NCBI GenBank assembly: GCA_030682795.1
Contig: JAUXNJ010000041.1
Location: forward strand, 1-56,754
Source of the DNA: Sphingobacteriaceae bacterium
GTDB taxonomy: Bacteria > Bacteroidota > Bacteroidia > UBA7662
Direction of reading: 5' to 3'
Length of the DNA: 56,754 nucleotides
Shown here: one piece after another, positions 20,296 through 50,834 of the stretch
Layout of the letters: each line of letters begins with the position of its first letter
Numbering within the stretch: position 1 is the stretch's first letter
The notes under the pieces: generated by a model
The model's input: the letters and a program-made list of their open reading frames with translations, nothing else
Database searches by the model: none
What the model was told of the DNA's origin: nothing
Translations under genes and position numbers: made by a program

Positions 20296-20466
20296 ACCTC
20301 CAAATTATCATTTTGTCGCCAAATTTTCACATTTAATACCAGTTGAGCGACTGAAAATGCAGTATTTGAATATTAATATTTTTAATCAACTGATATTCAG
20401 TGAAATAAATATATTTTTACGGTATTTTTTTGAAAATATTAACTAAACTTAACCAAAACAAGCTGT

Positions 20467-21960
20467 TCAATCCGTCAAAACAAGCTTGTGAAAACTTCGG
20501 TTTCCAGCTTGTTCGAGCTGCAATAAATACAAACCTGCTGGTAGTAATGGCATTGGCCATGACAGTTTCTCCTCTTCCACAAGGAGTGTGGCCTCTTGCA
20601 AAACGCGCCCTTGAAGGTCTCTTAATTGTAACAACAAAGGCATACCAATGTGCAATTGGTCGATGTACAATACAGCATTTTGATCAAGTTTAGTAGGGTA
20701 TACGCGTAGGGCTTGCTTGGACACTATTTGACTGGTGTTTAAGGCCAAGTTTGAGCTTTCAAAGTTTATTCTTCCGCCAAATGGGGTGCACAATTGCGCC
20801 CCAGTGATGGCCCTTACTTCCCAGCTGTGCGTTCTGTTGGGACGTATGTCACGTGTCCTATTTACATAAAAAGTGTCGGCCGTAAAGGTATCTACAACGG
20901 CGAAGTTGAACAGATAAATTTTGATTTGGTATAAGCTTGCGCCTGGAATACGCTGCCAACTGAATACTGCTTGATTGGGAATAACAGTATCGCCGTTTGC
21001 CGGTTGCAATTGTAAGGGAGCGTTGGAAATGAGGGGATAATTGGGCATGGGATTGATGCGCAAATAACCTCGCGATGCGTTGGTATCAACCAGAGTAGTG
21101 CGCATGGCGGTGATTTGCTGGGCTGAGAAGCGACTCATGCAAATATCGCTTGAGTAGCTCATGTAGAAGCTCGAGTCTGGCCTGAAACGATCGCCATTGA
21201 GGTCTAGTTGTACCCTTCCTGAAGGACAGCTCCAGCGATTCCCGATAAAATCAGCAGGTGTATCACAAAAGCCGTCACCTTCTAGATTACAGTTGGCACT
21301 TAAACGGGGTGCAATTTCGTTAAAATTTCTAGTAACCAGCTCAGCTTGAGGGTCTAACGGGTTTGAAGATGTGAAATCGAAGGTGTGAGGTAGATTGAAA
21401 AAATGTCCTATTTCATGGGTAAGGGTAGTACCAGTAGGTTGAGAGCAAGCAAATCCCATTACTACCGCACCATCGTTTTGGAAACCGCCAATTCCTGAAT
21501 TAGGATAAAAGGCAAAGCCACAAAGTCCCATTTGAGAGAGGTTAGTATAGTAGATATTGACCGTTCGAGGGACGTTGTTCGAGCTGATCATATTGAATAA
21601 AGGAGCATAATTGGGCGCGTTATAATAATCATCATCGTTGATGAAGTTTATAGCTTGTGGCACGTAAAAAAACATGCCAGCGCTGGCCATTCGTGTATTC
21701 AAATCACATATTGTGAGGTAGGCTTGTGTTTCGTTGAAGCCGCCTCCACCATTGCTGCTCCGGATGATGTGAATGGTCACCGGGATGTTGATGGAGATGG
21801 TGTCTTCGGGACTAGAAAGGGTATAATCTAAGTTCCGGAGGTAATCCATATTGGCTTTCGAAGGCAATCCTGTACCACAAGGCTGCAGGTCTGTTTGGGC
21901 TTGGATAAAAAAAGGACTCACCAACAAGGCAAGTCCCATATAAATTGTTTTGATCGACAT
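20467..21960 (-). CDS. Secreted M43-like zinc metalloprotease with T9SS sorting domain (copy 2)
   Basis: A 497-residue paralogue. Signal peptide ends at I-Q-A-Q (about 22). Zinc motif H-E-I-G-H-F-F-N-L-P-H at 182-192, with Asn where Gly is usual, and Met-turn Y-M-S-Y-S-S-D-I-C. The C-terminal sorting domain starts near V-Y-P-T-K-L and ends with G-L-Y-L-L-Q-L. ATG at 21960 is preferred to a GTG two codons earlier. Twelve bases after copy 3, so in one transcript with it. Confidence 0.88.
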   Translation of the reverse strand: MSIKTIYMGLALLVSPFFIQAQTDLQPCGTGLPSKANMDYLRNLDYTLSSPEDTISINIPVTIHIIRSSNGGGGFNETQAYLTICDLNTRMASAGMFFYVPQAINFINDDDYYNAPNYAPLFNMISSNNVPRTVNIYYTNLSQMGLCGFAFYPNSGIGGFQNDGAVVMGFACSQPTGTTLTHEIGHFFNLPHTFDFTSSNPLDPQAELVTRNFNEIAPRLSANCNLEGDGFCDTPADFIGNRWSCPSGRVQLDLNGDRFRPDSSFYMSYSSDICMSRFSAQQITAMRTTLVDTNASRGYLRINPMPNYPLISNAPLQLQPANGDTVIPNQAVFSWQRIPGASLYQIKIYLFNFAVVDTFTADTFYVNRTRDIRPNRTHSWEVRAITGAQLCTPFGGRINFESSNLALNTSQIVSKQALRVYPTKLDQNAVLYIDQLHIGMPLLLQLRDLQGRVLQEATLLVEEEKLSWPMPLLPAGLYLLQLEQAGNRSFHKLVLTD

Positions 21961-21972
21961 ACGCACCGGTAT

Positions 21973-23478
21973 TTATGGCATTAATAATATTTTCTGCGTT
22001 TTGCTTTTACCCACATTGTTTTGTAATCGAATGAGGTAAGTACCTGCGGGCAAATCAGCAGGTAATTGTACGGCGCGTTCTTCTGCTGTTAATAGGTGTG
22101 TGAACACCACTTTACCTTGCAGATCATGCATATAAAGATCCATGGGTTCGTTGTTTTGGCGAAGAATGTTGAGCTGATTGCCTTGCTGTATTGGGTTGGG
22201 GTATACAGTTATGTCTGCTATTTCGTTTTCGAATACGTTTGTGGCGGTTCTGGTGCTGGTTCTGAAGTCATGCCAAGTAATGGGCTTTACAACAAAATCG
22301 TTTTCATGATAAGGGGTAACAGACCACTGAAAATCGGTATTGATGTTCATTTTATTGTCGTACACAGAGAGAAAGGTGCCAGCGACCACTGTGTCTTTAA
22401 TCATGGTTGGGATGGCCGCACGTTTAATGCGTACATGGTAGAAGGTGGCACCTGGCACAGCGGTCCAGTTAAAATGCGCGAAATTAGGCTGCACATCTGT
22501 GGCTCCAATGGCTGGGGTTAAGGGCATGGCTTCGACGGTGATTGGACTCGTGCTCGGTCGTTGACGCGCTAATAAATAACCACGCGATGCACTTGTTGAG
22601 GCTAAGGTGGCATTCATTGCATTCATTTGCTGCTCGCTAAAAATATCACGACAAGTATTGGCCGCATAGGACATGATCAAACTCGAATCGGCAAAAAAGC
22701 GATCACCATTGATGTCGAAAGTGGCTGGGTTGGATAAACACTGCCAGCGTGCGCTGTATGGATCGGCTTTGGTATCACAGAAAAAATCACCAGAGGTATT
22801 GCAATTGGCTGGAAGGCGTGGTGCAGTCTCGTTAAAATCGCGTGTAACACGCTCTGCTGTTGACGCAGCGGGATTTCCTGAAGTGCCTTGGAAAGGATGT
22901 GGAAGTGAAAAAAAATGACCTAATTCATGCGCCAGTGTGCCAGATTCTGGTCCTGAACACGAATAGCTCATCATGGCTGCACCGCGAGAGATTGGGCCGC
23001 CAGGGCCGCTATTGGGGTAATAGGCATAGCCGCATAAACCCTGACTGCCTAAGTTCGTGAAATAAATGTTTACCACTCTGTTGAGGTTAAACGAGTCAAT
23101 CATTAAAGTGGCAATCTGTTTGTCGGGTGGATTCGACCAAATTTGATTGATGATGTAGCGAGGCATGCCTGCTTGGTAAAACTGAATTTTGGCTGGGGCA
23201 AAGCGACGGTTGAGCACTTGAAAAGAGCGCTTTAGGCTGTCTAGCGTGATGGCGGGAGCACCAGTAGGGGCATGTACCAAAAAGATTTGTGCCGCTAACC
23301 AAATGGTGTCATTAGAAATATTTTCTGCCGATAGTTGCGCATGGTCAAGCTTTTGAAGCCATTCGCTCAATTCTGGAGGTGTATCGCCGGTGCCACATTC
23401 ATCCAGTAGCTGCGCTTGCGCTAACGGATGCCAAAGGCAAAAAGCGGTTATAAGCCCACTAAATAGGAGTTTTTTCAT
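21973..23478 (-). CDS. Secreted M43-like zinc metalloprotease with T9SS sorting domain (copy 3)
   Basis: A 501-residue paralogue. Signal peptide ends at A-Q-A-Q (about 23). Zinc motif H-E-L-G-H-F-F-S-L-P-H at 184-194, Ser replacing Gly; Met-turn L-I-M-S-Y-A-A-N-T-C. The sorting domain begins I-T-V-Y-P-N-P-I-Q-Q-G and ends with G-T-Y-L-I-R-L, the best T9SS match of the four. Seven bases after copy 4. It is the most divergent in the N-terminal 150 residues. Confidence 0.88.
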   Translation of the reverse strand: MKKLLFSGLITAFCLWHPLAQAQLLDECGTGDTPPELSEWLQKLDHAQLSAENISNDTIWLAAQIFLVHAPTGAPAITLDSLKRSFQVLNRRFAPAKIQFYQAGMPRYIINQIWSNPPDKQIATLMIDSFNLNRVVNIYFTNLGSQGLCGYAYYPNSGPGGPISRGAAMMSYSCSGPESGTLAHELGHFFSLPHPFQGTSGNPAASTAERVTRDFNETAPRLPANCNTSGDFFCDTKADPYSARWQCLSNPATFDINGDRFFADSSLIMSYAANTCRDIFSEQQMNAMNATLASTSASRGYLLARQRPSTSPITVEAMPLTPAIGATDVQPNFAHFNWTAVPGATFYHVRIKRAAIPTMIKDTVVAGTFLSVYDNKMNINTDFQWSVTPYHENDFVVKPITWHDFRTSTRTATNVFENEIADITVYPNPIQQGNQLNILRQNNEPMDLYMHDLQGKVVFTHLLTAEERAVQLPADLPAGTYLIRLQNNVGKSKTQKILLMP

Positions 23479-23485
23479 CTTTAAT

Positions 23486-25033
23486 TTATCGCGTGATCAC
23501 GATTTTTTGATTGTGTGTTTTTTGACCTTGTTGTAACTGCAAAAAATAGGTGCCATTTGCAGCAGTCTGCATGGGGATTTCATAGGCCCCGCCACCTAAG
23601 TGCTCAACTTTACCTTGCTGAAGTGTGCGGCCCTGTAGGTCTTTCAGTTGGTAAACCAAACTTTCGTTATGTTCTTCGGCAATTTGAATTTTAATAGGCG
23701 AGTAACTTTGAAGTAAACTTGGATAAACTTTAAAGTGGTTGGCGGCAACTTCCGCAACGTTTACACCATAGCCTGTGGTAACGGTGAAATTGGTTTCGGC
23801 ACTATACGGACGACAAGTGACTTTGTGGTTCAACGGCATGACAGATATGCGGTATTGAATGCCAGCTGTGAGGGTGTTTTTAGTGTATAAAAAGGAAGTG
23901 TCGGCAGAAGTGAGTAATAGTTCGTCAACGACTGTGAAGTTTCTGCGAATGCGCACAACATACATATTGGCGCCAGGAACACCTCTCCATCTAAAAAACA
24001 CCCAGTTAGCTGGGTGACCTGTACTGTTGTCGGCAGGTTCCAAAACACTCGTATTGCCCGTAATGGTGTCATAGGCAGGCATAGGTGGAATGAGCAAATA
24101 CATGCGTGGACCATTGATGTTTTGACCGGTTGGCGACTGTGTTACAGAAAGTGTAGACCTCATGGCCGCCACTTGCTGTGGTGAAAATTTGTTTTGGCAG
24201 CCGTCGTTTGCATAACTCATATACAGTGTGCCGTCGGGTTGGAATAAATCTCCGTTAAAATCCACTACTGAGGTATTCGGACCAGGGCAATTCCAGCGAT
24301 CGGGACGGAAATCGGCTGGGGTATCGCAAAAACGATCTCCTGCCGTGGTGCAATTTGCCGAAAAACGGGGTGCTACTTCATTCGGGTTTCGGGTTACGCG
24401 CTCACTTGTAGAGGCAGCAGGTGCATCGGAAGTTTGATCGAATGGATGCGGAAGGCTTAAAAAGTGACCCATTTCGTGGGCGAAAGTGCTATTGCCTGGG
24501 CCAGAACAGCTGGGCGCCAACCAAATGGCTCCTTGACGATTCGGCTCGTTCGGAGAGCCTGTATTTGGATAATTGGCAAAACCACAAGCACCTACTGCAG
24601 ATAAGTTAGCGAAGTACACATTTACTACACGATTCACATTGTATTGGGTATTGGCAGCACCAGCAGCAGCAAATGAAGGGAGGTTGTAGATGTTGGTATT
24701 GTTGATGTAATTGATATCACCTCTAATGAAAAATTGTAAGCCGTGGGATTGGAATTTTTGATTCATTTCGCAGATGTTGGTCATTAAATTAGCCAAACTG
24801 TAGTAGCCTAAACCTGCATTGGTTCCAACAATATGTATTTTCAAGGGTATAAAAATGGTATTTTGAATATTTTCAACGTCGATTTGGTTGAAAATTCCAT
24901 TTTCGTGGAGCATGCTGATGTATTCTAAACTGGCTTTTGGTGCAGGACCAGTGCCGCAGGGGGCGTTAGCTTCTTGAGCGAAAATTTGGCTGCTACCAAA
25001 GAGTAAGCTTAAACCTAGAATTAATTTTTTCAT
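23486..25033 (-). CDS. Secreted M43-like zinc metalloprotease with T9SS sorting domain (copy 4)
   Basis: A 515-residue paralogue, first of the series in transcription order. Signal peptide ends at I-F-A-Q (about 20). Zinc motif H-E-M-G-H-F-L-S-L-P-H at 186-196 with Ser for Gly; Met-turn Y-M-S-Y-A-N-D-G-C. Closest to copy 1: both share E-R-V-T-R-N-P-N-E-V-A-P-R-F-S-A-N-C after the zinc motif. C-terminal sorting domain from about F-K-V-Y-P-S-L to G-T-Y-F-L-Q-L. Diverges from mdh across a 116-bp spacer. Confidence 0.88.
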   Translation of the reverse strand: MKKLILGLSLLFGSSQIFAQEANAPCGTGPAPKASLEYISMLHENGIFNQIDVENIQNTIFIPLKIHIVGTNAGLGYYSLANLMTNICEMNQKFQSHGLQFFIRGDINYINNTNIYNLPSFAAAGAANTQYNVNRVVNVYFANLSAVGACGFANYPNTGSPNEPNRQGAIWLAPSCSGPGNSTFAHEMGHFLSLPHPFDQTSDAPAASTSERVTRNPNEVAPRFSANCTTAGDRFCDTPADFRPDRWNCPGPNTSVVDFNGDLFQPDGTLYMSYANDGCQNKFSPQQVAAMRSTLSVTQSPTGQNINGPRMYLLIPPMPAYDTITGNTSVLEPADNSTGHPANWVFFRWRGVPGANMYVVRIRRNFTVVDELLLTSADTSFLYTKNTLTAGIQYRISVMPLNHKVTCRPYSAETNFTVTTGYGVNVAEVAANHFKVYPSLLQSYSPIKIQIAEEHNESLVYQLKDLQGRTLQQGKVEHLGGGAYEIPMQTAANGTYFLQLQQGQKTHNQKIVITR

Positions 25034-38480: not shown

Positions 38481-41093
38481 TTGGCAAAATCAAGTACCGC
38501 AAAGGAAACGCCTTTGATGCAACAATACAACAGCATCAAGGCCAAACATCCGGGGGCCATCCTTTTATTTAGGGTGGGCGACTTCTATGAAACCTTTGGG
38601 GAAGACGCTGTAAAAACGGCGGGCATTTTGGGGATTGTGCTCACCAAACGCTCCAATGGGGCCGCGGCCGACATGGAACTGGCTGGTTTTCCGCACCATT
38701 CGCTCGATACCTATTTGCCCAAGCTGGTGCGGGCAGGTCAACGCGTAGCCATTTGCGAGCAGATGGAGGATCCCAAAACGGTTAAAACCATCGTCAAGAG
38801 AGGGGTAACCGAAATGGTGACGCCTGGGGTGGCTTTCAGCGATAAATTACTCGACCACCGTTCGAACAACTATTTGGCGGCGGTATTTTTTAAAGAAGAC
38901 AGGGCCGGGGTATCGTTTTTAGACGTGAGCACCGGCGAATACATGGTGGGTGAGGGGCCGCTGGCCGAGATTGAAAAGCTGATGCAGAGTTTTAGGCCGG
39001 CTGAAGTCCTCTACCAAAAAAGCATGGGCAAGCAGTTTTTGGCCACTTTTGGCGAAAAATGGTATGCGCATCCCATCGACGATTGGGCATTTACGGCCGA
39101 TTATGCGCGGGAGACCTTGCTCAAACGCTTTGAAACCAGCTCGTTAAAGGGTTTTGGCATCGAAAGTTTGACCATGGGCGTGGTGGCTGCGGGCGTAGTG
39201 CTGCACTATCTAAACGAAACGCAACATCCACAAACCGACCACATTGCCGGCATTTCGCGCATCGATACGGCCGATTATGTGTGGATGGATCGTTTTACCA
39301 TCCGCAATTTGGAGTTGCTCGACCCGGCGCATGAAGGCGGGGTGCCGCTGATACAGGTGCTCGATCATACACGAACGCCTATGGGCGCGCGCATGCTCAA
39401 GCGCTGGTTGGTGTTTCCGTTGAAGCAACTCGATCGCATCAAAGACCGGCAGGAGGTGGTGCAGCACTTTTTTGCACAGTCGGCCTTTGCCAAGCAGCTC
39501 GAAGAGTTGTTAGGACCGGTGGGCGATTTAGAACGCCTGATTTCTAAAGTGGCCGTTGGCCGCATCAATCCCCGCGAAGTGGTGCAGCTGCGTCGTTCGA
39601 TGGGCTTATTTGAGCCTTTGCGCCAGTTGTGTGCGGGCAGCGGACTGCCGCAATTGCTCACCATTGCCGAGCAGCTCAATCCTTGTGCCCTCATTCGCGA
39701 ACGCCTCGAAAGGGAGCTGCAAGACGATGCCCCCATGCTTTTGAACAAGGGTGGGGTGATGGCCGCGGGGGTAGATGCCGAGCTCGATAAGCTGCGGTCG
39801 ATTGCCTATTCGGCCAAAGATTACATGGCCCAGATGCAGCAGCGGGAGATTGAACGCACGGGCATCACTTCCCTTAAAATAAGCTTTAACAATGTGTTTG
39901 GCTTTTATTTGGAGGTTACCAATTCCCACAAAGACAAGGTGCCCGCCGAGTGGATCCGCAAGCAAACCTTGGTGAATGCCGAGCGCTACATCACCGAGGA
40001 GCTCAAGGAATTTGAGGCGCAGTACCTCACCGCCGAGGAAAAAATAGGGGCTTTAGAAGAGAAGCTGTTTGCCAGTTTGGTGACGGCCTTGCACGAATAC
40101 ATCCAGCCCATTCAGCTCAATGCGCAATTGATGGCGCGGCTCGATTGTTTGTTGTCGTTTTACACCTTGGCCGAGTTGCGGAACTACAGTCGGCCTGAGG
40201 TAGACGACAGCGAGATCCTGCACATTGAAGGCGGCCGGCACCCGGTGATTGAAACGCGCTTAGCAGCTGGCGAAGGCTATGTGCCTAACGACATCTACCT
40301 GGATGCCAACAGTCAGCAAATTTTGATGATTACTGGTCCGAACATGGCCGGTAAATCGGCTTTGCTGCGACAAACGGCCCTCATTACCTTGCTCGCGCAA
40401 ATTGGCTGCTATGTGCCGGCCAAGCGGGCGCAGGTTGGTTTGGTCGATAAAATCTTTACCCGCGTGGGAGCAACCGACAATATTTCGTCGGGCGAGAGTA
40501 CGTTTATGGTTGAGATGAACGAAACGGCCAGCATTCTCAATAACATTTCGACCCGCTCGCTCATTTTGCTCGATGAAATTGGGCGCGGCACCAGCACCTA
40601 CGACGGCATCAGCATTGCCTGGGCCATTGCCGAGTACCTGCACGAGCACCCTGTGTACCGCCCGCGGACGCTTTTTGCCACGCACTACCACGAGCTCAAC
40701 GAGATGGAGGCGCAATACGACCGCATTCACAACTTCAATGTGAGTATCAAAGAGCATGGCAATAAAATCATCTTCCTGCGCAAATTGGTGAAGGGGGGCA
40801 GCGAGCACAGTTTCGGTATCCACGTGGCCCGCATGGCTGGGGTGCCGCAAACCGTGGTACGCAAAGCCGATGAGCTGCTGGCGAGCCTCGAAAAGGAAAA
40901 GGCGCGCGGTAATAAAAAACTGCAACGCTCCCGCAAGGAGGAGTTTCAGTTGTCGCTCTTCGAAATAAACGACCCGCAGCTGGCCCAGGCCCGCGAATTG
41001 CTCGAAAAAACCGATATTAACCGCATTACGCCGGTGGAAGCACTGTTTTTGTTGAATGAGCTGAAAAAGGTGATTGGGGAAACAAGTGTTTAA
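38481..41093 (+). CDS. mutS: DNA mismatch repair protein MutS
   Basis: An 870-residue mismatch-recognition ATPase. The mismatch-contact motif F-R-V-G-D-F-Y-E-T-F (Phe-x-Glu) is near residue 30; Walker A G-P-N-M-A-G-K-S at about 618; Walker B L-I-L-L-D-E-I-G-R-G-T-S; then F-A-T-H-Y-H-E-L. Full domain set to the C-terminal helix-turn-helix. TTG at 38481 keeps the usual M-A-K-x-x-x-x-K-E-T-P-L-M-Q-Q-Y start; an ATG at 38517 would lose it. Confidence 0.97.
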   Translation: MAKSSTAKETPLMQQYNSIKAKHPGAILLFRVGDFYETFGEDAVKTAGILGIVLTKRSNGAAADMELAGFPHHSLDTYLPKLVRAGQRVAICEQMEDPKTVKTIVKRGVTEMVTPGVAFSDKLLDHRSNNYLAAVFFKEDRAGVSFLDVSTGEYMVGEGPLAEIEKLMQSFRPAEVLYQKSMGKQFLATFGEKWYAHPIDDWAFTADYARETLLKRFETSSLKGFGIESLTMGVVAAGVVLHYLNETQHPQTDHIAGISRIDTADYVWMDRFTIRNLELLDPAHEGGVPLIQVLDHTRTPMGARMLKRWLVFPLKQLDRIKDRQEVVQHFFAQSAFAKQLEELLGPVGDLERLISKVAVGRINPREVVQLRRSMGLFEPLRQLCAGSGLPQLLTIAEQLNPCALIRERLERELQDDAPMLLNKGGVMAAGVDAELDKLRSIAYSAKDYMAQMQQREIERTGITSLKISFNNVFGFYLEVTNSHKDKVPAEWIRKQTLVNAERYITEELKEFEAQYLTAEEKIGALEEKLFASLVTALHEYIQPIQLNAQLMARLDCLLSFYTLAELRNYSRPEVDDSEILHIEGGRHPVIETRLAAGEGYVPNDIYLDANSQQILMITGPNMAGKSALLRQTALITLLAQIGCYVPAKRAQVGLVDKIFTRVGATDNISSGESTFMVEMNETASILNNISTRSLILLDEIGRGTSTYDGISIAWAIAEYLHEHPVYRPRTLFATHYHELNEMEAQYDRIHNFNVSIKEHGNKIIFLRKLVKGGSEHSFGIHVARMAGVPQTVVRKADELLASLEKEKARGNKKLQRSRKEEFQLSLFEINDPQLAQARELLEKTDINRITPVEALFLLNELKKVIGETSV

Positions 41094-41328: not shown

Positions 41329-44300
41329 ATGAGGTTAGCATTACTAAGTATTTTATTTTTGGCATCAACCCTGGCGGCATTTGGTCAAGGCGATATTGAG
41401 TTTATTACTGCAACCACCTACAATGGTGGAGGAAATAATGTTGGAAGTGCTGTTTTGCCTGCCCCTACCGGAGTTGAAGTAGGTGATGTGATGGTAGTTC
41501 AGTTAACGAGGAATGATAATGGCATCCCAACAGGAGTGCCCGCGGGTTGGACTTTTATTACTTCTCAGAATAATGGCAACAACATTTCTCAACAATTTTA
41601 CTATAAGTTTATTACAACTTCTGAACCTGCAGATTATACTTTCTCCTACGGAAGTAATGTTCGCACCATTGGACATTTGTTGGTTTATCGAAATATAAAT
41701 GCAAAAAGTCCTTTAGTCAATAATGCTTCTACTTCTGGAAGTGATAACGGCAACAATAACCTTGTTGCACCGTCTGTGAATGCGCTAACTACGAATACAT
41801 ATTTATTAGCATTTTTATCTGCACGTTCACAAAACAACGCAACCGATGTTTATATCGATGGGAGTCTAAGTACAAGGGCTTCAGGAATAATAACTGGAGC
41901 GAATAACAATCGTATAGTTAACATAAATGGCGATGAACCAATTGCTGGCACAGGTAATACAGCAACCAAGTCAGGGGGATATACGCCAACAGGTAATACC
42001 CAACCATGGGTCGCCACCAGTCTCCTCCTTCGTCCCTCCAAAATCTTTTACGCTTACCAATCGGGCCTGTGGTCGGAGCCAAACAGTTGGACCCGCGATC
42101 CATCCGGCACCACGCTTTTGAAACCAGAAGTACCGACGCCTTTTGATAGTGTGGTGATTTTGAACGGCCGGGTCATTACACTCGGCGCCAATGTTACAAC
42201 AGCTTCTCTGGGCATCAACATCCAGGCCGGGGCCACGCTGAATTTGCAGAATTTCACCTTAAATACCCTTACAGCCTTGAGTGGTGCTGGGGTACTTCGG
42301 GTAACAGGTGCCACCGCTTACTACCCTAGTGTAAGTGGTACCAATAGTTTTGTGCAAGCAGGAGGCGGTACGGTAGAATACGCCCTCAATGCGGCAACCA
42401 TTGCCTTGCCAACAGGGCCTTTCAACAACCTGGTGTTGCTCAGAGAAAGCTCCAGCGCTGCCACTTATCAACTTACCAATGACCTCACGGTTTTTGGTAA
42501 TTTGAGTATTCAACGAACAGGATCAGCAAATGCTGTTTTGTTAATAGGTAACAGCACAGTAGTGAGAAATTTGGTGGTTGGCGGTAATGTAAGCGTTGCA
42601 GCAGGCTGCAGTATTACCACCGTAAACGCCAATGCCATCCACAATTTAGAAATTGGGGGAGATTTGGTTAACAATGGTGTGATTCGGTTTACCAATCAAG
42701 GATCTCCTAATTATACAGTTGCAACCACTACAGGGGCAGTAAACGTAACTTTCACCGGTAATAGTAGCAATAAAATCGACTGTTTTGGCACCACCGATTT
42801 TTACCGATTAGTACTTAACAAAGGGGTAGATCAAACCTTTGTGTTGACAGTTAATTCCACGAATGTTGCTAATTTCGGATTGTATGGTCCCAACAACCAG
42901 TCCAACACAGGTGTAGATCCTAATCCAACCATTCTCAAAGCACTTTGGATACAAAATGGCACCTTGCGACTGCGGGAAAACATCAGCGTTCCTTCTTTGA
43001 CGTCTGGTGGTAACGACTTTTTTGTGCCCTTGAATGGTGCTTTGTGGGTGGATGGAGCAACCGTTACTTCTACCAACATAGTTACGGGCAATACAGGATT
43101 TACAATTATCGGAAAACTTTTAGTTTCGGCAGGGGAGTTAAATTCTGCGTCATCAGCAGGTATTGTTTACCGGCAAGATGCGCAGATCATTGTAACAGGA
43201 GGATTGGTTGATATCGGGCAGTTTCGTAGATCTGGTGCATCTGGAAATTTTCGTGCCTCCTACAATCAATCTGGTGGGTTAGTGATTGTACGCGGTGGGG
43301 AAGACAACAACGGGTTTGCCCGTTTTGGATTACCCGATGCTGATTGCGCCTTTACCATGTCGGGCGGCGAATTACGTATTAGTAGCCCTACCACCCTAAA
43401 TCCCGGTGGTGCCTTTGGCATTCAGGTGTCCCCCTTGAATTATAATGTCACAGGCGGAACAATCCGCATCACCTCCAATACCGCCAATTTAGCCCGCATA
43501 AATACAAGCGGACCGATTTTTAACCTGATTTTAGAGCGCACGGGCAGCGGTGCCAATTTCGAGCTAAATTCAGATTTAACCATCTTGAATGACATATCGA
43601 TTAACACGACCGCCTCTAACCTTGTTACCAATAATTTTGCACTCAACATCCGCCGAGATTTTACCATTGCCGCTGGAACAACCTTTACGCCAGGCACCTC
43701 TACCATAACTTTTAATGGGGCGTCCAGGCAAGCTTTTACCATCAATGGGGCTATTTCTGGCACCATTCATAACTTAACCGTTAACAAATCGGCCGACACC
43801 TTACAGCTTTTAGGGAGCTTGTCGACCTTGGAGGTAAACAACAGCTTTTCGCTTTTGTCGGGGGTGTTGAACGACAATGGCAAAACTGTTGAGATTCGGG
43901 GGCCTTTAAACTTGAGCGGTATCCATATTGGGACTGGAAAATTACAGTTAACAACCGCGATATCGCGCAATATCAGCGGAAGTGGTAGTGGAGTGGTGCA
44001 AAACCTAGAATTATCGGGTCCTGCCTCCAATACCACCTACACCCTTCAGGCGCCGTTGCGCATTAAGGGCGCACTTACCTTCATTGCGAGCGGGGGCAAC
44101 CAACGCATCTTAGATATCCAGTCTAATAACCTTTTGTTGGATACCAATGCAAGTGTTACTGGCAACAATACCACCCGTTTTATACGCACCAATGGTTTGC
44201 AGTCGGCAGGTGGCGTTACCAAATTCTACGACGGCAATACATTTACTTTTCCGGTGGGTACCACCACCAGTTATGCCCCAGCCACCATTGCTTTTGATGT

Positions 44301-47300
44301 AAATCCCGCTACGCGTGGAAGCATTACGGTGAGGCCGGTTAATTTTGAGCACCCTAACGTCACCATTAACAATCGGTCGCTCACCTATTATTGGCGGGTG
44401 ACTCAAAATGGATTTGTATTGGGTAGCGCCAAGGTGATTCACAATTATACCTATCCGCAAGCCAATGTGGTAACCGGCACGGGGATTACAGAAGATGGCT
44501 ATGTATCGGCTCGTTTCGATGCTAGCAACAATGGTTGGGTGGTAGGTACAAGTGCCGATGTAAACGAAACTACCAATGAAATTACCTTGGCATCTGCCAC
44601 TTTTGAAACATCTATAACGGGTGATTACACAGCGGGCGACAACGCTCCTGACAATCCCTTTGGAACCGTTACGATTTATTACAGCTACCAAAGCGGTCCG
44701 TGGAACAACCTAAGTACGTGGTCTATAGCAGGACATACAGGTACCCAGGTACAACCGGTATCGATTCCCAACGCCAACAGCATCGTACGTATTGGAAATG
44801 GAACGAATGTTTTTCATACCGTGAACGTTACCGCAAATGCTGCCCTTTCGGGAAGTTTGGTGATTGCTTTTGGATCTACGCTTGATTTGCAACAAACAAC
44901 AGGACACAACTTTGGAGCCATTGATGGAGAGTCTGTGGCGGGCAGCGGTCGTTTACGAATTGACAGGAGTGGGGCCACTTACATTTTTCCAAATGGCGAT
45001 TTTGGCGACTTTATCGGCAATAATGGTGGTGAAATGGAGTATTACAACAGCACAACGAATGCTGTAAACTTGCCGGCAGCGCCCGTTCAGTATAAAAATC
45101 TCACCATCAATGCCCAAAATACAGGGATCATTACTTTTCCTGCTACCAATTTGGTGGTGTTAGATACATTAAAATTTAGCTCGGCCAGTACCCGACAAGT
45201 TTACTCATACAATACTGCGGCAGTAGGAGGAAATATCACCGTTAATAAAGATTTAAAAGTACAGGGCGGCATTTTTGAAATCCGCAACAACGGAAATGCC
45301 CGCAACATTACAGTGCTCAGGAATGTAGAAGTGGCCGCGGGCGCTATTTTTAGAATTGAAGGAGGTGGCACCGCCACGACGCATGCCTTAACAGTGGGAG
45401 GTAACATTACCAATAATGGCACTTTCGATCTTTGGCAATCGGCTACACTTCTCATTAATTTGTTGGTAAATGGCACCAATGAAGCCCTGTTAACAGGTAC
45501 CAATGGATCGGCAACTACGGAGTTAGGTAATTTAACAGTTGATAAAGGTTTGAATTGTGCAAGCGGTTTTAGGGTGAATGTGTTAGGGACTTTCACCACG
45601 CAATCGAATAGCTGGCTGACCTTATCAAAAGGATATTTTGATTTTGCGCGAACTACAGGAGCAATTACGCTTACCAACACTGCGGTTGCTTTTGATATTC
45701 CTGCAAATACTTGTTTGATTTTGAGTGGTGCCGGTGCAACAATCAATGTAGGCAACGTCGCAAGCAATGATGCAGATTTAAATTTGAGAGGCTTGTTGCG
45801 CATATCAAATGGCACGTTTAACGTTGGAAATGCGGCCAATAATACGAACAACGATATTGAAATTGCTTCAGCTGGTAACCCAGAATTAGAAGTGTCGGGA
45901 GGGGGAGTGCTCAACGTAAATGGACAAATTCGTCGCTCCTTGGTTACACAATCAGGAGCGCTCATCTACAAACAAGCAGGAGCCAGTAATGTAACCATCC
46001 GTGGGCGCAACCACAACAATACCCGTGGTAAAATTGAGGTGCTTAATCAGGGTGCTTATTTTGAAATGGGCGGCACTGCCCAACTTAACATCAATACAGG
46101 AGGTGCTACCACTTATGCAGATTTATATGTAAGGCCAGACAGCAGCTTGGTAACGGGAGGCACTGTACGGCTTACGCCGCTCACTGCTGGTGGATCAGAA
46201 ACTTTTACTTTCGATGTTACCTACAGCTTTTACAACCTCGAAATCATCAGGAATGGTGGCTCAGGTACTTCTACAGTGAATTTGTTTGTGAATAACCTCA
46301 CGGTTAACAACGATTTTACACTAGGTGCAGGCGGCATCATCAACACCAATAATTTGAATGTACGAATCGGTGGTAATTTCATAAAATCGGCTACTGCAGC
46401 GCAATACAATGGTGGTACTTCAACGGTAACCCTGTTTGGCAATGCCGCCCAAATTAGTGGCGATTTTACCACCCAGTCGTTTCACCAGCTCACCATCGAT
46501 CAAAATGCAACGGTTACCCAACAGGCATCGAGTCCCATTCGTGTGCTCAATACCCTCGAAATCAGAACAGGAGCTACCCTCAACGATAATGGAAATGCCA
46601 TACAATTACGTGGCAACGTAATTAATAACGGCATCCACACTTCTCCTTCTAATAGTGCAAGTAACACCTTGGTTTTTGAAGGTGTCAATTTGCAGTCGAT
46701 CACAGGAACGGGTGTTTTTGGTAATCTCGTACTCAACAACAGCAATAACTTATTATTGAATAATTCCATTACCATCAATAGGCAATTAAGCATGACCTTT
46801 GGTTTGATCGATTTGGGAGCTAATCGTATTAGTTTTGGCGAAAATGCTACCATAACGGGTTCTTTTAGTACTACGCGCATGCTCAGGTCTAATGGGGTTT
46901 TGAGTGATGCAGGGGTCACCAAGGCTTGGAATGGTACAGGTAGCTTTACTTTTCCGCTTGGAGTAAGCGGAAAATACACGCCTGCAACCATCAATGTGAC
47001 GGCTGCTACTAATCCAGGGACAGTTAATATAAGGGTTGTGAATGTGAAACATCCAAGCACCCGCGATGCGGCTGATTTACAACTGAATTATTACTGGCAG
47101 GTTGATACCACTGGTTTCGCAGGCGGAGTAACCGCTACCCATACTTACACTTACGCGCAAAGTGATGTAACAGGTACTGAAGCCAATTATCGGGGAGGAA
47201 GATTTTTGTTTCCTAATTGGTCGCCGCTGCTCGGCATTGTTGGTGCAGTAAATGCAAGTACCAACGTAATTACTTTAACAGGTGTTAATTATCTTGGTGG

Positions 47301-49974
47301 AGGCTTTACCGCGGGTGAGAGCTCAGAGTTCACAGCGGTGAGTACTTATTACAGTCGCGATGCAGTATGTCCTGGGGGATGTAACTGGGAAGATGTGAAT
47401 AGTTGGTCTACCACAGGTCATGCAGGTGGAGCAGCTGCAACTCCTCCCAATGGCGCTCCGGTTATTATTGCCACAGGACATACTGTAAATGTCACTACCA
47501 ATACTCAATTGGCCGAATCGGTACAGCTCAATGGCACCGCAATACTTAATACCAATCAAACTTTCGCACATAATTTTGGAGTGGTAAGCGGTACGGGTAC
47601 CATCCGGATTCGGGCCACGGGCAGTCAACAATTTGTTTTCCCAGGAGGCAATTACACGGCCTTTACCAGCAGTACCGGTGGTACTGTGGAGTTTTATAAT
47701 GCCGGTAATGGCATTTTGCCGACCCAAACTACCTACAATAGGATTGTATTTAAAGATGCAAGTACACGTACTCAAGCCAATGTAGACTGGGTGATTAATG
47801 GAGATGTAATTATTGAGGCAGGTAATGTGAACAACACGAGTTTTAATAAAAACTGGGAATTAAGGGCTAATTGGAATAACCAAGTAGGGGCAGCAGGCTT
47901 TGTACCTGGCACAGGCACGGTAACATTCAATTCGGCTTCGGCTCAAACCATTACTGGAGTTACAAATTTCTTTAGAATGGCAGTATCGGGAGGTGGGGCA
48001 AAAAACTTAAACAATACCATTACAATTCAAGACCAACTCATATTAAACAGCGGTCGTGTTTATTTAGGTACACACGATTTAGTTATGGATTCCTTGGCCG
48101 GTGTGGGTGGTAGTCCAAATGCCTCCGCTATGGTGGTGCAAAATGGCACTGGTAGGCTGCGTAAAAATTTTCGTTCAACTTCAGGTGCCTTTACTTTTCC
48201 TATCGGAGAAGAGACTGGAACGGCGGAATACAGTCCTGCTACCCTCAATTTCACCGCTGGGACCTTCAGCAGTAATGCACAGGCAAGTGTACAAGTGGTA
48301 GATGCACAGTCGAGCGAATGCTCGGGAAATAACAATTATATTACAAGGTTCTGGACTTTTGCACACAATGGAATTACTGCTTTTACAGTTACCGCAACAG
48401 GACAATACACTGCTGCCGATGTGGTTGGACAAGAAGCGCAAATATTTGCCCGTATGTCGCGTCCTTCGCTTTCGTGTTTGAATGGAGCGGCAGCCAATCT
48501 AACCCTCAAAACCATTACCATTTCAGGCATTAATGTACTGAACATACTGTCAGCAGGAGAAGCTGCCGCACCAGAACCCACCATTTCAGCTACGCTCCTG
48601 ACCTTTGCCAATGTGAGCAGTACTAGTTTGACCATTAAATGGACCAATGGTAATGGCAGCGGACGGCTAGTCCTCATGCGAGCAGGCAGTGCAGTGAACA
48701 GTAATCCCGCCGATAATGTATCCTACACTGCTGACTCTGTATTTGCTGCTGGTTCGGAAATAGGTACCTCAAACTGGGTGGTTTTTCAAAGCAGCGGCGA
48801 CAGCGTGCGGGTTACTGGCTTACTCCCTGCAACGCAATATCACATAGCTGTTTTTGAGTACAGTAACTTTGGTATCGACATAGATTTTAAAATTTCAGCA
48901 CCTGCCATTGGCAACCGAGCAACGCTGGCTTTAGAACCGACAACTCCTGCGGCTAGTTTGTCATTTAGCAGCATCGGTGTTTCGCAGTTTACATTAAATT
49001 GGAGCAATGGAAATGGTGCAGGTAGATTGGTGTTGGCGCGACAAGCAGGACCCGTAAATGTCGTTCCTGCTGATGGCATGGCTTATGCTGCCAACGCCTC
49101 TTTTGCCCAAGGTGCAGAAGTGGGGAGCGGAAATTTTGTTGTCTTTGCAGGTAGTGGAAATACTTTCACAGTTACTGGCCTCAATCAAAATGAACGCTAT
49201 CACTTTAGTGTATTCGAATATAATGGCGCAGATTCGCTACGCAATTATTTAGCTACCGCGCCTGCAGTTGGTAATCAGCATACTTGGCTCAGACTCCAGA
49301 TGAAGGCACATTTAGAAGGTCCCTACAATAAGGAGAATAATCAAATGATACAGAATTTAACTGGTATTATTCCGCGACAACATCCTTATAAAAACAGCCC
49401 TTTCAATTTTTCAAGTTACGATAGTATCCAAGTTTTACCAGCAGGGGCTTTGATTGATTGGGTGCTTCTAGAAGTGCGAATGGCAAGCGCAGCTGCAAAT
49501 GCAACAGCCGCTACCATCAAAGCACGTACTTTGGCTTTTATTGATAATCAAGGCAATTTGGTGGATACCGCGGGCGGCACAGCAGGTGTTGTGTTTCCAA
49601 CCGATAGCAATGGGCAGTTTTACATCACCCTGTACCACCGTACCCACATTCCTGTGATGTCGGCTTTAGCAGCGACTCCACCTGTGGATCAGGTGAATGG
49701 CGCTTTTAGTTACGACTTTACAACGGCAGTTAACCGGGCTTTTGGTACCGATGCCTTGATTGAAGTAGAAAATGGCGTTTGGGCATTGTACGCGGGTAGG
49801 GTCGAAAATGCCACGCCTTTTACGATCGACCAGGCAGATCGCAATGCTACTTGGAGCGACCGTAACAAACTTGGTTACGAGGCCAGTGATGCTGCTTTAG
49901 AAGGAACGGTGGATGCTACCGACCGGTCGTTGACCTGGAATAACCGTCAGCGAGCCAGCCAAATCCCTCAGTAA
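41329..49974 (+). CDS. Giant modular secreted protein (three G8-like/beta-solenoid units, two FN3-like domains)
   Basis: A 2881-residue exported protein, Asn/Thr/Gly-rich. ATG 41329 gives a clean signal peptide (L-L-S-I-L-F-L-A-S, ending A-F-G-Q); an ATG 16 codons earlier is less good. After an N-terminal beta domain, a threefold unit follows: a G8-like module with W-x-x-x-x-S-W at about 42,050, 44,680 and 47,340, then beta-solenoid-like sequence, then a T-F-P-(V/L/I)-G module at about 44,240, 46,940 and 48,190. Two fibronectin-type-III-like domains follow (about 48,570-49,280). The C-terminus has H-L-E-G-P-Y, D-W-V-L-L-E-V-R and H-R-T-H-I-P-V-M-S-A, a pattern shared by large Bacteroidota surface proteins, then two D-R-x-x-T-W-x-x-R repeats. 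No standard T9SS sorting domain is visible. Likely adhesin or matrix protein; function unproven. Confidence 0.85.
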   Translation: MRLALLSILFLASTLAAFGQGDIEFITATTYNGGGNNVGSAVLPAPTGVEVGDVMVVQLTRNDNGIPTGVPAGWTFITSQNNGNNISQQFYYKFITTSEPADYTFSYGSNVRTIGHLLVYRNINAKSPLVNNASTSGSDNGNNNLVAPSVNALTTNTYLLAFLSARSQNNATDVYIDGSLSTRASGIITGANNNRIVNINGDEPIAGTGNTATKSGGYTPTGNTQPWVATSLLLRPSKIFYAYQSGLWSEPNSWTRDPSGTTLLKPEVPTPFDSVVILNGRVITLGANVTTASLGINIQAGATLNLQNFTLNTLTALSGAGVLRVTGATAYYPSVSGTNSFVQAGGGTVEYALNAATIALPTGPFNNLVLLRESSSAATYQLTNDLTVFGNLSIQRTGSANAVLLIGNSTVVRNLVVGGNVSVAAGCSITTVNANAIHNLEIGGDLVNNGVIRFTNQGSPNYTVATTTGAVNVTFTGNSSNKIDCFGTTDFYRLVLNKGVDQTFVLTVNSTNVANFGLYGPNNQSNTGVDPNPTILKALWIQNGTLRLRENISVPSLTSGGNDFFVPLNGALWVDGATVTSTNIVTGNTGFTIIGKLLVSAGELNSASSAGIVYRQDAQIIVTGGLVDIGQFRRSGASGNFRASYNQSGGLVIVRGGEDNNGFARFGLPDADCAFTMSGGELRISSPTTLNPGGAFGIQVSPLNYNVTGGTIRITSNTANLARINTSGPIFNLILERTGSGANFELNSDLTILNDISINTTASNLVTNNFALNIRRDFTIAAGTTFTPGTSTITFNGASRQAFTINGAISGTIHNLTVNKSADTLQLLGSLSTLEVNNSFSLLSGVLNDNGKTVEIRGPLNLSGIHIGTGKLQLTTAISRNISGSGSGVVQNLELSGPASNTTYTLQAPLRIKGALTFIASGGNQRILDIQSNNLLLDTNASVTGNNTTRFIRTNGLQSAGGVTKFYDGNTFTFPVGTTTSYAPATIAFDVNPATRGSITVRPVNFEHPNVTINNRSLTYYWRVTQNGFVLGSAKVIHNYTYPQANVVTGTGITEDGYVSARFDASNNGWVVGTSADVNETTNEITLASATFETSITGDYTAGDNAPDNPFGTVTIYYSYQSGPWNNLSTWSIAGHTGTQVQPVSIPNANSIVRIGNGTNVFHTVNVTANAALSGSLVIAFGSTLDLQQTTGHNFGAIDGESVAGSGRLRIDRSGATYIFPNGDFGDFIGNNGGEMEYYNSTTNAVNLPAAPVQYKNLTINAQNTGIITFPATNLVVLDTLKFSSASTRQVYSYNTAAVGGNITVNKDLKVQGGIFEIRNNGNARNITVLRNVEVAAGAIFRIEGGGTATTHALTVGGNITNNGTFDLWQSATLLINLLVNGTNEALLTGTNGSATTELGNLTVDKGLNCASGFRVNVLGTFTTQSNSWLTLSKGYFDFARTTGAITLTNTAVAFDIPANTCLILSGAGATINVGNVASNDADLNLRGLLRISNGTFNVGNAANNTNNDIEIASAGNPELEVSGGGVLNVNGQIRRSLVTQSGALIYKQAGASNVTIRGRNHNNTRGKIEVLNQGAYFEMGGTAQLNINTGGATTYADLYVRPDSSLVTGGTVRLTPLTAGGSETFTFDVTYSFYNLEIIRNGGSGTSTVNLFVNNLTVNNDFTLGAGGIINTNNLNVRIGGNFIKSATAAQYNGGTSTVTLFGNAAQISGDFTTQSFHQLTIDQNATVTQQASSPIRVLNTLEIRTGATLNDNGNAIQLRGNVINNGIHTSPSNSASNTLVFEGVNLQSITGTGVFGNLVLNNSNNLLLNNSITINRQLSMTFGLIDLGANRISFGENATITGSFSTTRMLRSNGVLSDAGVTKAWNGTGSFTFPLGVSGKYTPATINVTAATNPGTVNIRVVNVKHPSTRDAADLQLNYYWQVDTTGFAGGVTATHTYTYAQSDVTGTEANYRGGRFLFPNWSPLLGIVGAVNASTNVITLTGVNYLGGGFTAGESSEFTAVSTYYSRDAVCPGGCNWEDVNSWSTTGHAGGAAATPPNGAPVIIATGHTVNVTTNTQLAESVQLNGTAILNTNQTFAHNFGVVSGTGTIRIRATGSQQFVFPGGNYTAFTSSTGGTVEFYNAGNGILPTQTTYNRIVFKDASTRTQANVDWVINGDVIIEAGNVNNTSFNKNWELRANWNNQVGAAGFVPGTGTVTFNSASAQTITGVTNFFRMAVSGGGAKNLNNTITIQDQLILNSGRVYLGTHDLVMDSLAGVGGSPNASAMVVQNGTGRLRKNFRSTSGAFTFPIGEETGTAEYSPATLNFTAGTFSSNAQASVQVVDAQSSECSGNNNYITRFWTFAHNGITAFTVTATGQYTAADVVGQEAQIFARMSRPSLSCLNGAAANLTLKTITISGINVLNILSAGEAAAPEPTISATLLTFANVSSTSLTIKWTNGNGSGRLVLMRAGSAVNSNPADNVSYTADSVFAAGSEIGTSNWVVFQSSGDSVRVTGLLPATQYHIAVFEYSNFGIDIDFKISAPAIGNRATLALEPTTPAASLSFSSIGVSQFTLNWSNGNGAGRLVLARQAGPVNVVPADGMAYAANASFAQGAEVGSGNFVVFAGSGNTFTVTGLNQNERYHFSVFEYNGADSLRNYLATAPAVGNQHTWLRLQMKAHLEGPYNKENNQMIQNLTGIIPRQHPYKNSPFNFSSYDSIQVLPAGALIDWVLLEVRMASAAANATAATIKARTLAFIDNQGNLVDTAGGTAGVVFPTDSNGQFYITLYHRTHIPVMSALAATPPVDQVNGAFSYDFTTAVNRAFGTDALIEVENGVWALYAGRVENATPFTIDQADRNATWSDRNKLGYEASDAALEGTVDATDRSLTWNNRQRASQIPQ

Positions 49975-50066
49975 TTTTTTTCTTTCTCTGATTGGCATAA
50001 TTGGTTATTAGCTGCCAATTCAGTGGGTTGAGTGTCAAACAACCTCCTATTTATTATCTTCGTGCC

Positions 50067-50834
50067 ATGATTCAAACTGCAGAACGCTCTTCGGCCCAAA
50101 GTGCCTCCGAAAACCCGATTTACCAGCGTCACATCATCGCTTACCTGGAAGCTGCCAAACGTATCAGTGGTGCCTTGTTGGAAGTGGGTTGTGGTGAAGG
50201 CTACGGAATCAGCATTTTAGGTCCACATTGTAGCAGTTATTTGGGCATTGATAAATTCCCAACCAGTGCTACGGTGCCAGCGCATGGGCGTATCCTGCAA
50301 ATGGAAGTGCCGCCATTCAAAGGCATTGAAGATAACAGCTTCGACTTTGTAGTGACCTTCCAAGTCATTGAGCACATCGAAAACGACTTACTGTTTTTAC
50401 AAGAAATTAAACGTGTGCTTAAGCCAGGCGGGAAGTTGATTTTAACCACTCCAAATCGCCTCATGTCGCTTAGCCGCAATCCTTGGCACATCCGCGAATA
50501 CGTGCCGGGCGAGATGAAAGGCATTTTGGCCGAAGTTTTTGGTGCAGAGCAAGTTGATTTACAAGGCATCTTCGGCAACGAAAAGGTGATGGCCTACTAT
50601 GAGAAAAACAAAGCCTCTGTGCGTCGCTTCACCCGCTTTGATATTTTTAATTTGCAATATAGATTGCCACGTAGGGCATTGCAAGTGCCTTATGACCTGG
50701 CCAATCGCCTCAACCGCATCCTCCTTAAAAAAGAAAATGCAGGTTTGGTAAGCGATATTGTGGCTTCAGACTATTTTGTGGCACCTATCAATGAGCATGC
50801 GCTCGACTATTTTGCCGTTACTACCAAAAAATAA
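50067..50834 (+). CDS. Class I SAM-dependent methyltransferase
   Basis: A 255-residue methyltransferase. Motif I is L-L-E-V-G-C-G-E-G-Y-G (37-47); F-D-F-V-V-T-F-Q-V-I-E-H-I and L-K-P-G-G-K-L-I-L-T-T-P-N are motifs II-III. The form resembles enzymes acting on lipids, quinones or glycans; target unknown. ATG at 50067; a start 22 codons earlier would include what looks like promoter sequence (TATCTTCG at 50055-50062). Confidence 0.88.
   Translation: MIQTAERSSAQSASENPIYQRHIIAYLEAAKRISGALLEVGCGEGYGISILGPHCSSYLGIDKFPTSATVPAHGRILQMEVPPFKGIEDNSFDFVVTFQVIEHIENDLLFLQEIKRVLKPGGKLILTTPNRLMSLSRNPWHIREYVPGEMKGILAEVFGAEQVDLQGIFGNEKVMAYYEKNKASVRRFTRFDIFNLQYRLPRRALQVPYDLANRLNRILLKKENAGLVSDIVASDYFVAPINEHALDYFAVTTKK

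What the first reader, a model, noticed from the sequence alone, without database searches (positions are those of the whole stretch)
41329..49974. Threefold modular build in a 2881-residue surface protein
A G8-like module recurs at about 42,050, 44,680 and 47,340, spaced near 880 residues, each followed by solenoid-like sequence and a T-F-P-x-G module (about 44,240, 46,940 and 48,190) whose next lines share Y-x-P-A-T-(I/L) and later T-Y-Y-W or T-R-F-W. The third unit is shorter. The copies are well diverged, so the triplication is old. I know of no named family with this full order.
Basis: partly seen in the sequence, partly recalled or inferred. Interest (0 to 1): 0.55.

Follow-up and report, generated by a model that had tools for sequence, protein, structure and literature searches.

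The report
Ancient threefold bacterial surface stalk protein
This very long exported bacterial protein is built from three related copies of one large unit, an arrangement kept in distant relatives across a whole phylum, and its relatives swap the tail piece that should fix them to the cell surface, including one tail type that no family database we searched describes.

Summary
Window 41329-49974 encodes 2881 residues with three homologous units: U1 238-1115, U2 1116-2004, and a shortened U3 2005-2420. U1 against U2 is 28.6% identical over 923 columns, E 4e-47; profile-profile E 3e-121, with nothing from shuffled columns. U3 lacks about 470 middle residues.

The layout is a family trait. A core of [head-middle-TFPxG] x2 plus a third head is found in 38 of 40 uncut proteins from Bacteroidota/Balneolota, and the copies group by position rather than by genome. 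No Pfam or NCBIfam model covers the core. 'G8' is not met for this protein. U2 is predicted with high confidence as a beta-helix (pLDDT 93.1), resembling adhesin and tailspike helices.

My reading is an exported rigid adhesin or stalk. Its homologues carry interchangeable tails: T9SS type A (20 of 45), type B (2), a 'PxTGPxYHxPN' ending (17 by pattern and eye), or, as here, a dockerin-resembling C-terminal module (4). That module ends 26 of 26 examined frames and sits in one clade inside type A relatives. I predict, untested, that it is an undescribed T9SS sorting or anchoring tail.

The parts
41329..49971 (+). whole reading frame of the 2881-residue protein
   Evidence: open frame; full-length relatives at 58% (residues 237-2880) and 44% (9-2881) identity
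41329..41388 (+). signal-peptide-like start (aa 1-20)
   Evidence: judged by eye from the translation; no predictor was run
41389..42036 (+). N-terminal region before unit 1 (aa 21-236), no family assigned
   Evidence: no Pfam or NCBIfam match
42040..44673 (+). unit 1 (aa 238-1115): head 42046-42396, middle 42922-43482, TFPxG module 44122-44664
   Evidence: blastp and hhalign to unit 2; module models
44674..47340 (+). unit 2 (aa 1116-2004): head 44677-45063, middle 45604-46179, TFPxG module 46819-47334
   Evidence: AlphaFold model with pLDDT 93.1
47341..48588 (+). unit 3, shortened (aa 2005-2420): head 47347-47709, no middle, TFPxG module 48070-48537
48595..49284 (+). two fn3-like domains (about aa 2423-2514 and 2530-2652)
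   Evidence: Pfam fn3 E 3.2e-7, two stretches, best at 2423-2514; the second range is read from matches to relatives
49273..49971 (+). C-terminal module resembling a dockerin at its end
   Evidence: profile match E 4e-102, the window being a member of the profile; no Pfam match at E up to 5, no NCBIfam match in the last 130 aa

Best explanation
It is a Sec-exported, surface-displayed giant protein made of a rigid stalk of two full beta-helix units and one shortened unit, each closed by a TFPxG module, then two fn3 spacers and a C-terminal sorting/anchoring module. Shown: three homologous units; conservation of the layout across Bacteroidota and Balneolota; orthologues with T9SS type A or type B tails in the same place. 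Predicted only: the beta-helix fold (high-confidence model of unit 2). [quoted passage not shown] Most speculative step: the dockerin-resembling tail is what the T9SS or a dedicated surface partner recognises, replacing the type A tail.
For: Units. Conserved order in 38 of 40 uncut frames. Positional grouping in trees. Beta-helix model with pLDDT 93.1; VIA-align Z 13.5 (rmsd 3.5, 220 aligned) to the adhesin-like Awp1 A-domain, 12.5 (4.2, 256) to TibA, 11.1 (4.7, 261) to antigen 43. Type A tails on 20 and type B on 2 of 45 homologues. PorP/SprF directly after both type B cores. The own genome has SprA and 111 type A tails. The dockerin clade lies inside type A relatives. The module is always C-terminal in the 26 frames examined.
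Against: No binding or secretion was tested. The fold matches are generic to beta-helices: phage tailspikes and an alginate lyase score about the same, and Foldseek gives no PDB match at E up to 1e-3. The tail's own fold could not be predicted (pLDDT 50.5). SprA is present in 286 of 295 genomes of the class sample, so its co-occurrence with the tail is uninformative. No T9SS gene lies among the neighbours scanned beside the window gene.
Confidence: 0.6

Rival explanations
1. The units are catalytic: beta-helix polysaccharide lyases or hydrolases in tandem, so the protein digests rather than binds.
For: Similar VIA-align scores to an alginate lyase (6kfn, Z 11.9), an alginate epimerase/lyase (8jaz, Z 10.8) and tailspike depolymerases; near-invariant polar residues in the unit 2 middle.
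Against: No Pfam enzyme family matches the protein or any sizeable number of the 47 unit 2 members; the conserved columns are mostly glycine and structural.
Confidence: 0.15
2. The C-terminal module is not a T9SS signal but a docking module that binds a partner on the surface, as a dockerin binds a cohesin.
For: Two D-x-x-x-D-R-like segments at the end; one relative's protein reaches Dockerin_1 weakly (E 0.012, 16.3 bits, cut-off 22.9).
Against: No cohesin was found in the shared N-terminal domain of other tail-bearing proteins; the tail replaces a type A tail on an orthologous core, and something must still carry the protein over the outer membrane.
Confidence: 0.3
3. The repeat is only the low-complexity look of any solenoid and not a true triplication.
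For: The reversed profile still gives E 2.5e-5 and weaker off-register hits exist.
Against: The collinear hit over 812 columns has E 3e-121 and ordered motifs recur in all three units; shuffled controls fail.
Confidence: 0.01

Closest known systems
SprB and other T9SS type B adhesins with PorP/SprF partners
   Same: Giant exported protein; two relatives carry a type B tail with PorP/SprF directly downstream.
   Different: The window protein has no type B tail, no SprB repeat match and no PorP/SprF gene beside it; its genome has two PorP/SprF genes on other contigs.
Self-associating autotransporter passengers (antigen 43, TibA, UpaB)
   Same: Predicted long beta-helix.
   Different: No autotransporter match in Pfam; homologues carry T9SS tails instead; three-unit build.
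G8-domain proteins (PF10162)
   Same: The head module's W..P..W motif and the G8 profile are weakly alike in 3 of 47 members.
   Different: No match in the window protein even at E 1.
T9SS type A, B and C sorting tails
   Same: C-terminal position; orthologous cores carry type A or type B at the same place.
   Different: The window tail module is about 230 residues, and its last 130 residues match none of TIGR04183, TIGR04131 or NF033708.

Membership tests
G8 domain (PF10162) | profile match over the curated cut-off | tested here: not met
   no match in the whole protein at E up to 1; none in unit 2 at E up to 0.1, and 3 of 47 members at best E 2.8e-4
T9SS type A cargo | C-terminal TIGR04183 / PF18962 domain | tested here: not met
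   window tail: no family (member 1), though 20 of 45 homologous tails match TIGR04183
T9SS type B cargo | C-terminal TIGR04131 / PF13585 domain | tested here: not met
   window tail: no family (member 1); 2 of 45 homologous tails match TIGR04131
T9SS type C cargo | C-terminal NF033708 domain | tested here: not met
   window tail: no family (member 1); 1 of 45 at E 0.0093
Dockerin type I (PF00404) | profile match over the curated cut-off | tested here: not met
   window tail: no family at E up to 5; one of 6 proteins scanned reaches 16.3 bits against a cut-off of 22.9
T9SS-exported protein of any kind | export over the outer membrane that depends on SprA and the T9SS motor | not testable with these tools
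   needs an experiment; the genome has SprA
Autotransporter (type V secretion) | C-terminal translocator barrel | tested here: not met
   no autotransporter model hit in Pfam
Fibronectin type III | fn3 profile over the cut-off | tested here: met
   30.9 bits against a cut-off of 25, two stretches

The most novel reading that the evidence does not exclude
The C-terminal module at 49273-49971 is an undescribed class of T9SS sorting/anchoring tail: it ends proteins of many kinds, replaced a type A tail on an orthologous giant core, and is multiplied in some genera. The core family is then a natural swap experiment in which one stalk is paired with type A, type B, 'PxTGPxYHxPN' and dockerin-resembling tails.
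Probability: 0.4. Interest if true: 0.72.

Novelty: new variant of a known kind. Interest (0 to 1): 0.5.

Why it matters
If right, it names an unannotated phylum-wide giant surface family with an old, fixed repeat order. It also offers a directly testable set of orthologues that differ in the C-terminal sorting module. How the T9SS recognises different tails and sends cargo to different places is an active question (PMC12618676, abstract and passages read); a further tail class would widen it and add proteins to the predicted secretomes of many Bacteroidota.

Tried and rejected
Viral contigs: no relative. Self-blastp of the whole protein gave only the trivial match, so units were compared apart. 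PDB sequence search with the U2 profile found nothing at E up to 1, and with the tail profile nothing below E 0.97. Foldseek against viral models gave two matches under 1e-3, both uncharacterised phage proteins with TM-scores of 0.2 or less, taken as generic solenoid matches. A cohesin reading of the N-terminal domain shared by some tail-bearing proteins was dropped: no PDB or Pfam support. The idea that SprA co-occurrence supports a T9SS role for the tail was dropped: all 36 tail-bearing genomes have SprA, but so do 250 of the other 259 sampled. Structure of the tail: pLDDT 50.5, unusable, so no fold search was made with it. Literature: seven searches listed no paper that by its title or abstract start deals with this tail or core, in an open-access library only.

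Limits. Unit trees used 16 genomes chosen by me from 48 aligned cores, and the unit 3 TFPxG piece was long enough in only 11 of 16. In the head-module tree, unit 2 of L037, L041 and L038 falls beside unit 3, and unit 2 of L085 falls beside its own unit 1 (L085 rows are long branches). The core alignment kept 47 of 58 relatives' frames plus the window (coverage and span filters). Module models were built from the same family they then scanned, so counts are descriptive; neighbouring hits of one module were collapsed before the count. Several loci are the same organisms seen twice (L032 = G057, L034 = G005, L037 = G046, judged by equal contig lengths and frames). Tail classes 'PxTGPxYHxPN' and 'dockerin-resembling' were assigned by pattern and by eye: 15 and 3 relatives by pattern, L072 and L084 added to the first by eye, the window added to the second. 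The remaining two of 45 (L036, L075) look frame-broken. Which 20 tails match TIGR04183 was not listed one by one; I equate them with the 18 pattern hits plus L051 and L085. Pfam's CHU_C model touched 3 of 45, TIGR04131 2 of 45; I count 2.

Full report
What is there. The frame 41329-49974 (+) is open throughout and encodes 2881 residues with a signal-peptide-like start (the signal peptide was judged by eye). Split into pieces, unit 1 matches unit 2 at 28.6% identity over 923 columns (E 4e-47). Unit 2 matches unit 3 in two blocks (1127-1241 with 2022-2125, E 6e-14; 1711-1989 with 2128-2404, E 2e-15), so the third unit lacks the middle of about 470 residues. Shuffles put the comparisons U1/U2, U2/U3 and U1/U3 37.7, 17.3 and 8.7 s.d. 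above chance, and the flanking regions 1.0-1.3.

The layout belongs to a family. Among 60 related genomes, 27 have some match; a 58% relative (G005) and a 44% full-length relative from another family (G057) share the order including the tail, and a 38% one (G046) shares residues 232-2259 and then ends in another tail. One scan of 84,980 species genomes gave 55 loci, most of them covering residues about 240 to 2200 or beyond. The 47 frames kept plus the window align with 364 columns in which at least 80% of rows agree. Models of head (G8-like), middle and TFPxG modules read the order head-middle-TFPxG-head-middle-TFPxG-head in 49 of 59 frames, and in 38 of 40 that are not cut by a contig end. 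The two exceptions are L075, which looks frame-broken, and L083, where the second head is not detected. A third TFPxG module was recognised in 10 of those 49. Extra modules precede the core in many; the G005 relative has three tandem heads of about 115 residues (59/113, 46/113 and 50/115 identical pairwise). A model of the unit 2 middle finds a match in 24 of 395 sampled genomes of the phylum, own genome included: wide but scattered.

The triplication is old. In a tree of TFPxG modules from 16 genomes the rows group by unit position (3 label changes where 2 is the least possible; shuffled mean 20), and in the head tree 4 changes against a shuffled mean of 23. The exceptions are told under Tried and rejected. 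The scattered distribution leaves room for spread by gene transfer, so the age is not fixed.

Shape. The AlphaFold model of unit 2 with 47 sequences has mean pLDDT 93.1 and pTM 0.82 and is almost all strands. VIA-align places mostly model residues 250-730 on solved beta-helices: Awp1 A-domain Z 13.5 (rmsd 3.5, 220 aligned), tailspike 5w6h 12.7 (3.5, 258), TibA 12.5 (4.2, 256). These ranks are tied, identities are 6-13% in the rows listed, and the head and TFPxG ends are barely tested. Foldseek finds no PDB match at E up to 1e-3. I read each full unit as a beta-helix with a TFPxG closing module, so the protein is likely a stiff rod. Rod and adhesin are inference. The near-invariant polar residues of the unit 2 middle (QIRR, NNDIEY, DLYxRP) are the best candidates for a binding or catalytic face.

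Tails. After the core the window protein has two fn3-like domains and a C-terminal module of about 230 residues with no Pfam match at E up to 5 and no NCBIfam match in its last 130 residues at E up to 0.01. Of 45 tails with a complete 3' end (44 relatives and the window), 20 match T9SS type A and 2 type B; the rest are 17 with a PxTGPxYHxPN-like ending, 4 dockerin-resembling and 2 that look broken (by pattern and eye). Both type B cores are followed 27 and 34 bases later by PorP/SprF. In seven loci with the PxTGPxYHxPN ending a CHU_C gene and then PorP/SprF lie within about 4.2 kb downstream; none of the type A or dockerin-resembling loci shows these within the DNA held, which differs between loci (families by Pfam). 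On a tree of unit 2 the four dockerin-tailed cores are one clade (SH-aLRT 99) inside a clade with three type A-tailed cores, two from Balneolales and one from Bacteroidetes bacterium HLUCCA01; over all 40 labelled rows the tails need 10 changes against a shuffled mean of 17.1. So tails were exchanged on an orthologous core.

The dockerin-resembling module elsewhere. It is found in 36 of 295 genomes of the class, own genome included, often many times per genome in genus g14. In the 26 frames read in 23 loci (25 distinct proteins, since L088 repeats one of L022; far fewer than all hits) it always ends the protein, 0-31 residues before the stop, which leaves no room for a type A tail of about 70 residues behind it. 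The genomes that carry it have SprA, but SprA is nearly universal in the sample (286 of 295), so this is no test. PMC10202324 (passages read) describes types A, B and C as the known T9SS tails; PMC5831590 (one passage read) states that no cohesins or dockerins were found in its genome, in line with other Bacteroidetes genomes. I therefore predict, with probability 0.4, an undescribed T9SS-linked tail; a docking module for a surface partner is the main rival.

Surroundings. The window gene lies between mutS (38481-41093) and a methyltransferase gene (50001-50834), with no T9SS partner gene among the ten neighbours scanned. Only one other protein of its genome (909 aa, contig C5) shares its tail.

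Verdict. The finding is real and its main interpretation holds, except for the G8 name. It is an unnamed, phylum-wide giant surface-protein family of a known general kind; the tail swapping raises it above ordinary.

Noticed in passing
L053:256-8775, L060:2672-14454, L044, L056, L063, L078, L082: In Bacteroidales relatives the core protein, and in L053 and L060 one or two secreted proteins after it, end in a short motif like PxTGPxYHxPN with no T9SS tail of their own; a CHU_C (type B) protein and then PorP/SprF follow. It looks like a shared C-terminal motif within SprB/SprF-like operons.
   Followed up: partly
L034 (same protein as G005:C18), residues about 243-590 from its likely start: The head module is tandemly triplicated at the N-terminus in this relative, so heads can multiply on their own.
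   Followed up: partly
genomes of genus g14 (G460, G542, G517, G631 and others); L097-L099, L101, L103-L105: The C-terminal module of the window protein is heavily multiplied there: 16 to 58 first-look candidates per genome, of which at most nine were scored.
   Followed up: partly
G000:C5 (L029:1273-1827), L022, L025: Some tail-bearing proteins share an N-terminal domain of about 170 residues (VxVxNQ..FYFDVYL) with no Pfam or PDB match; it often comes with the dockerin-resembling tail.
   Followed up: partly
window 18781-25033 (-): Four reading frames of about 500 aa in a row on the minus strand; the two scanned match peptidase M43, one of them with a T9SS type A tail. The other two were not scanned.
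   Followed up: no
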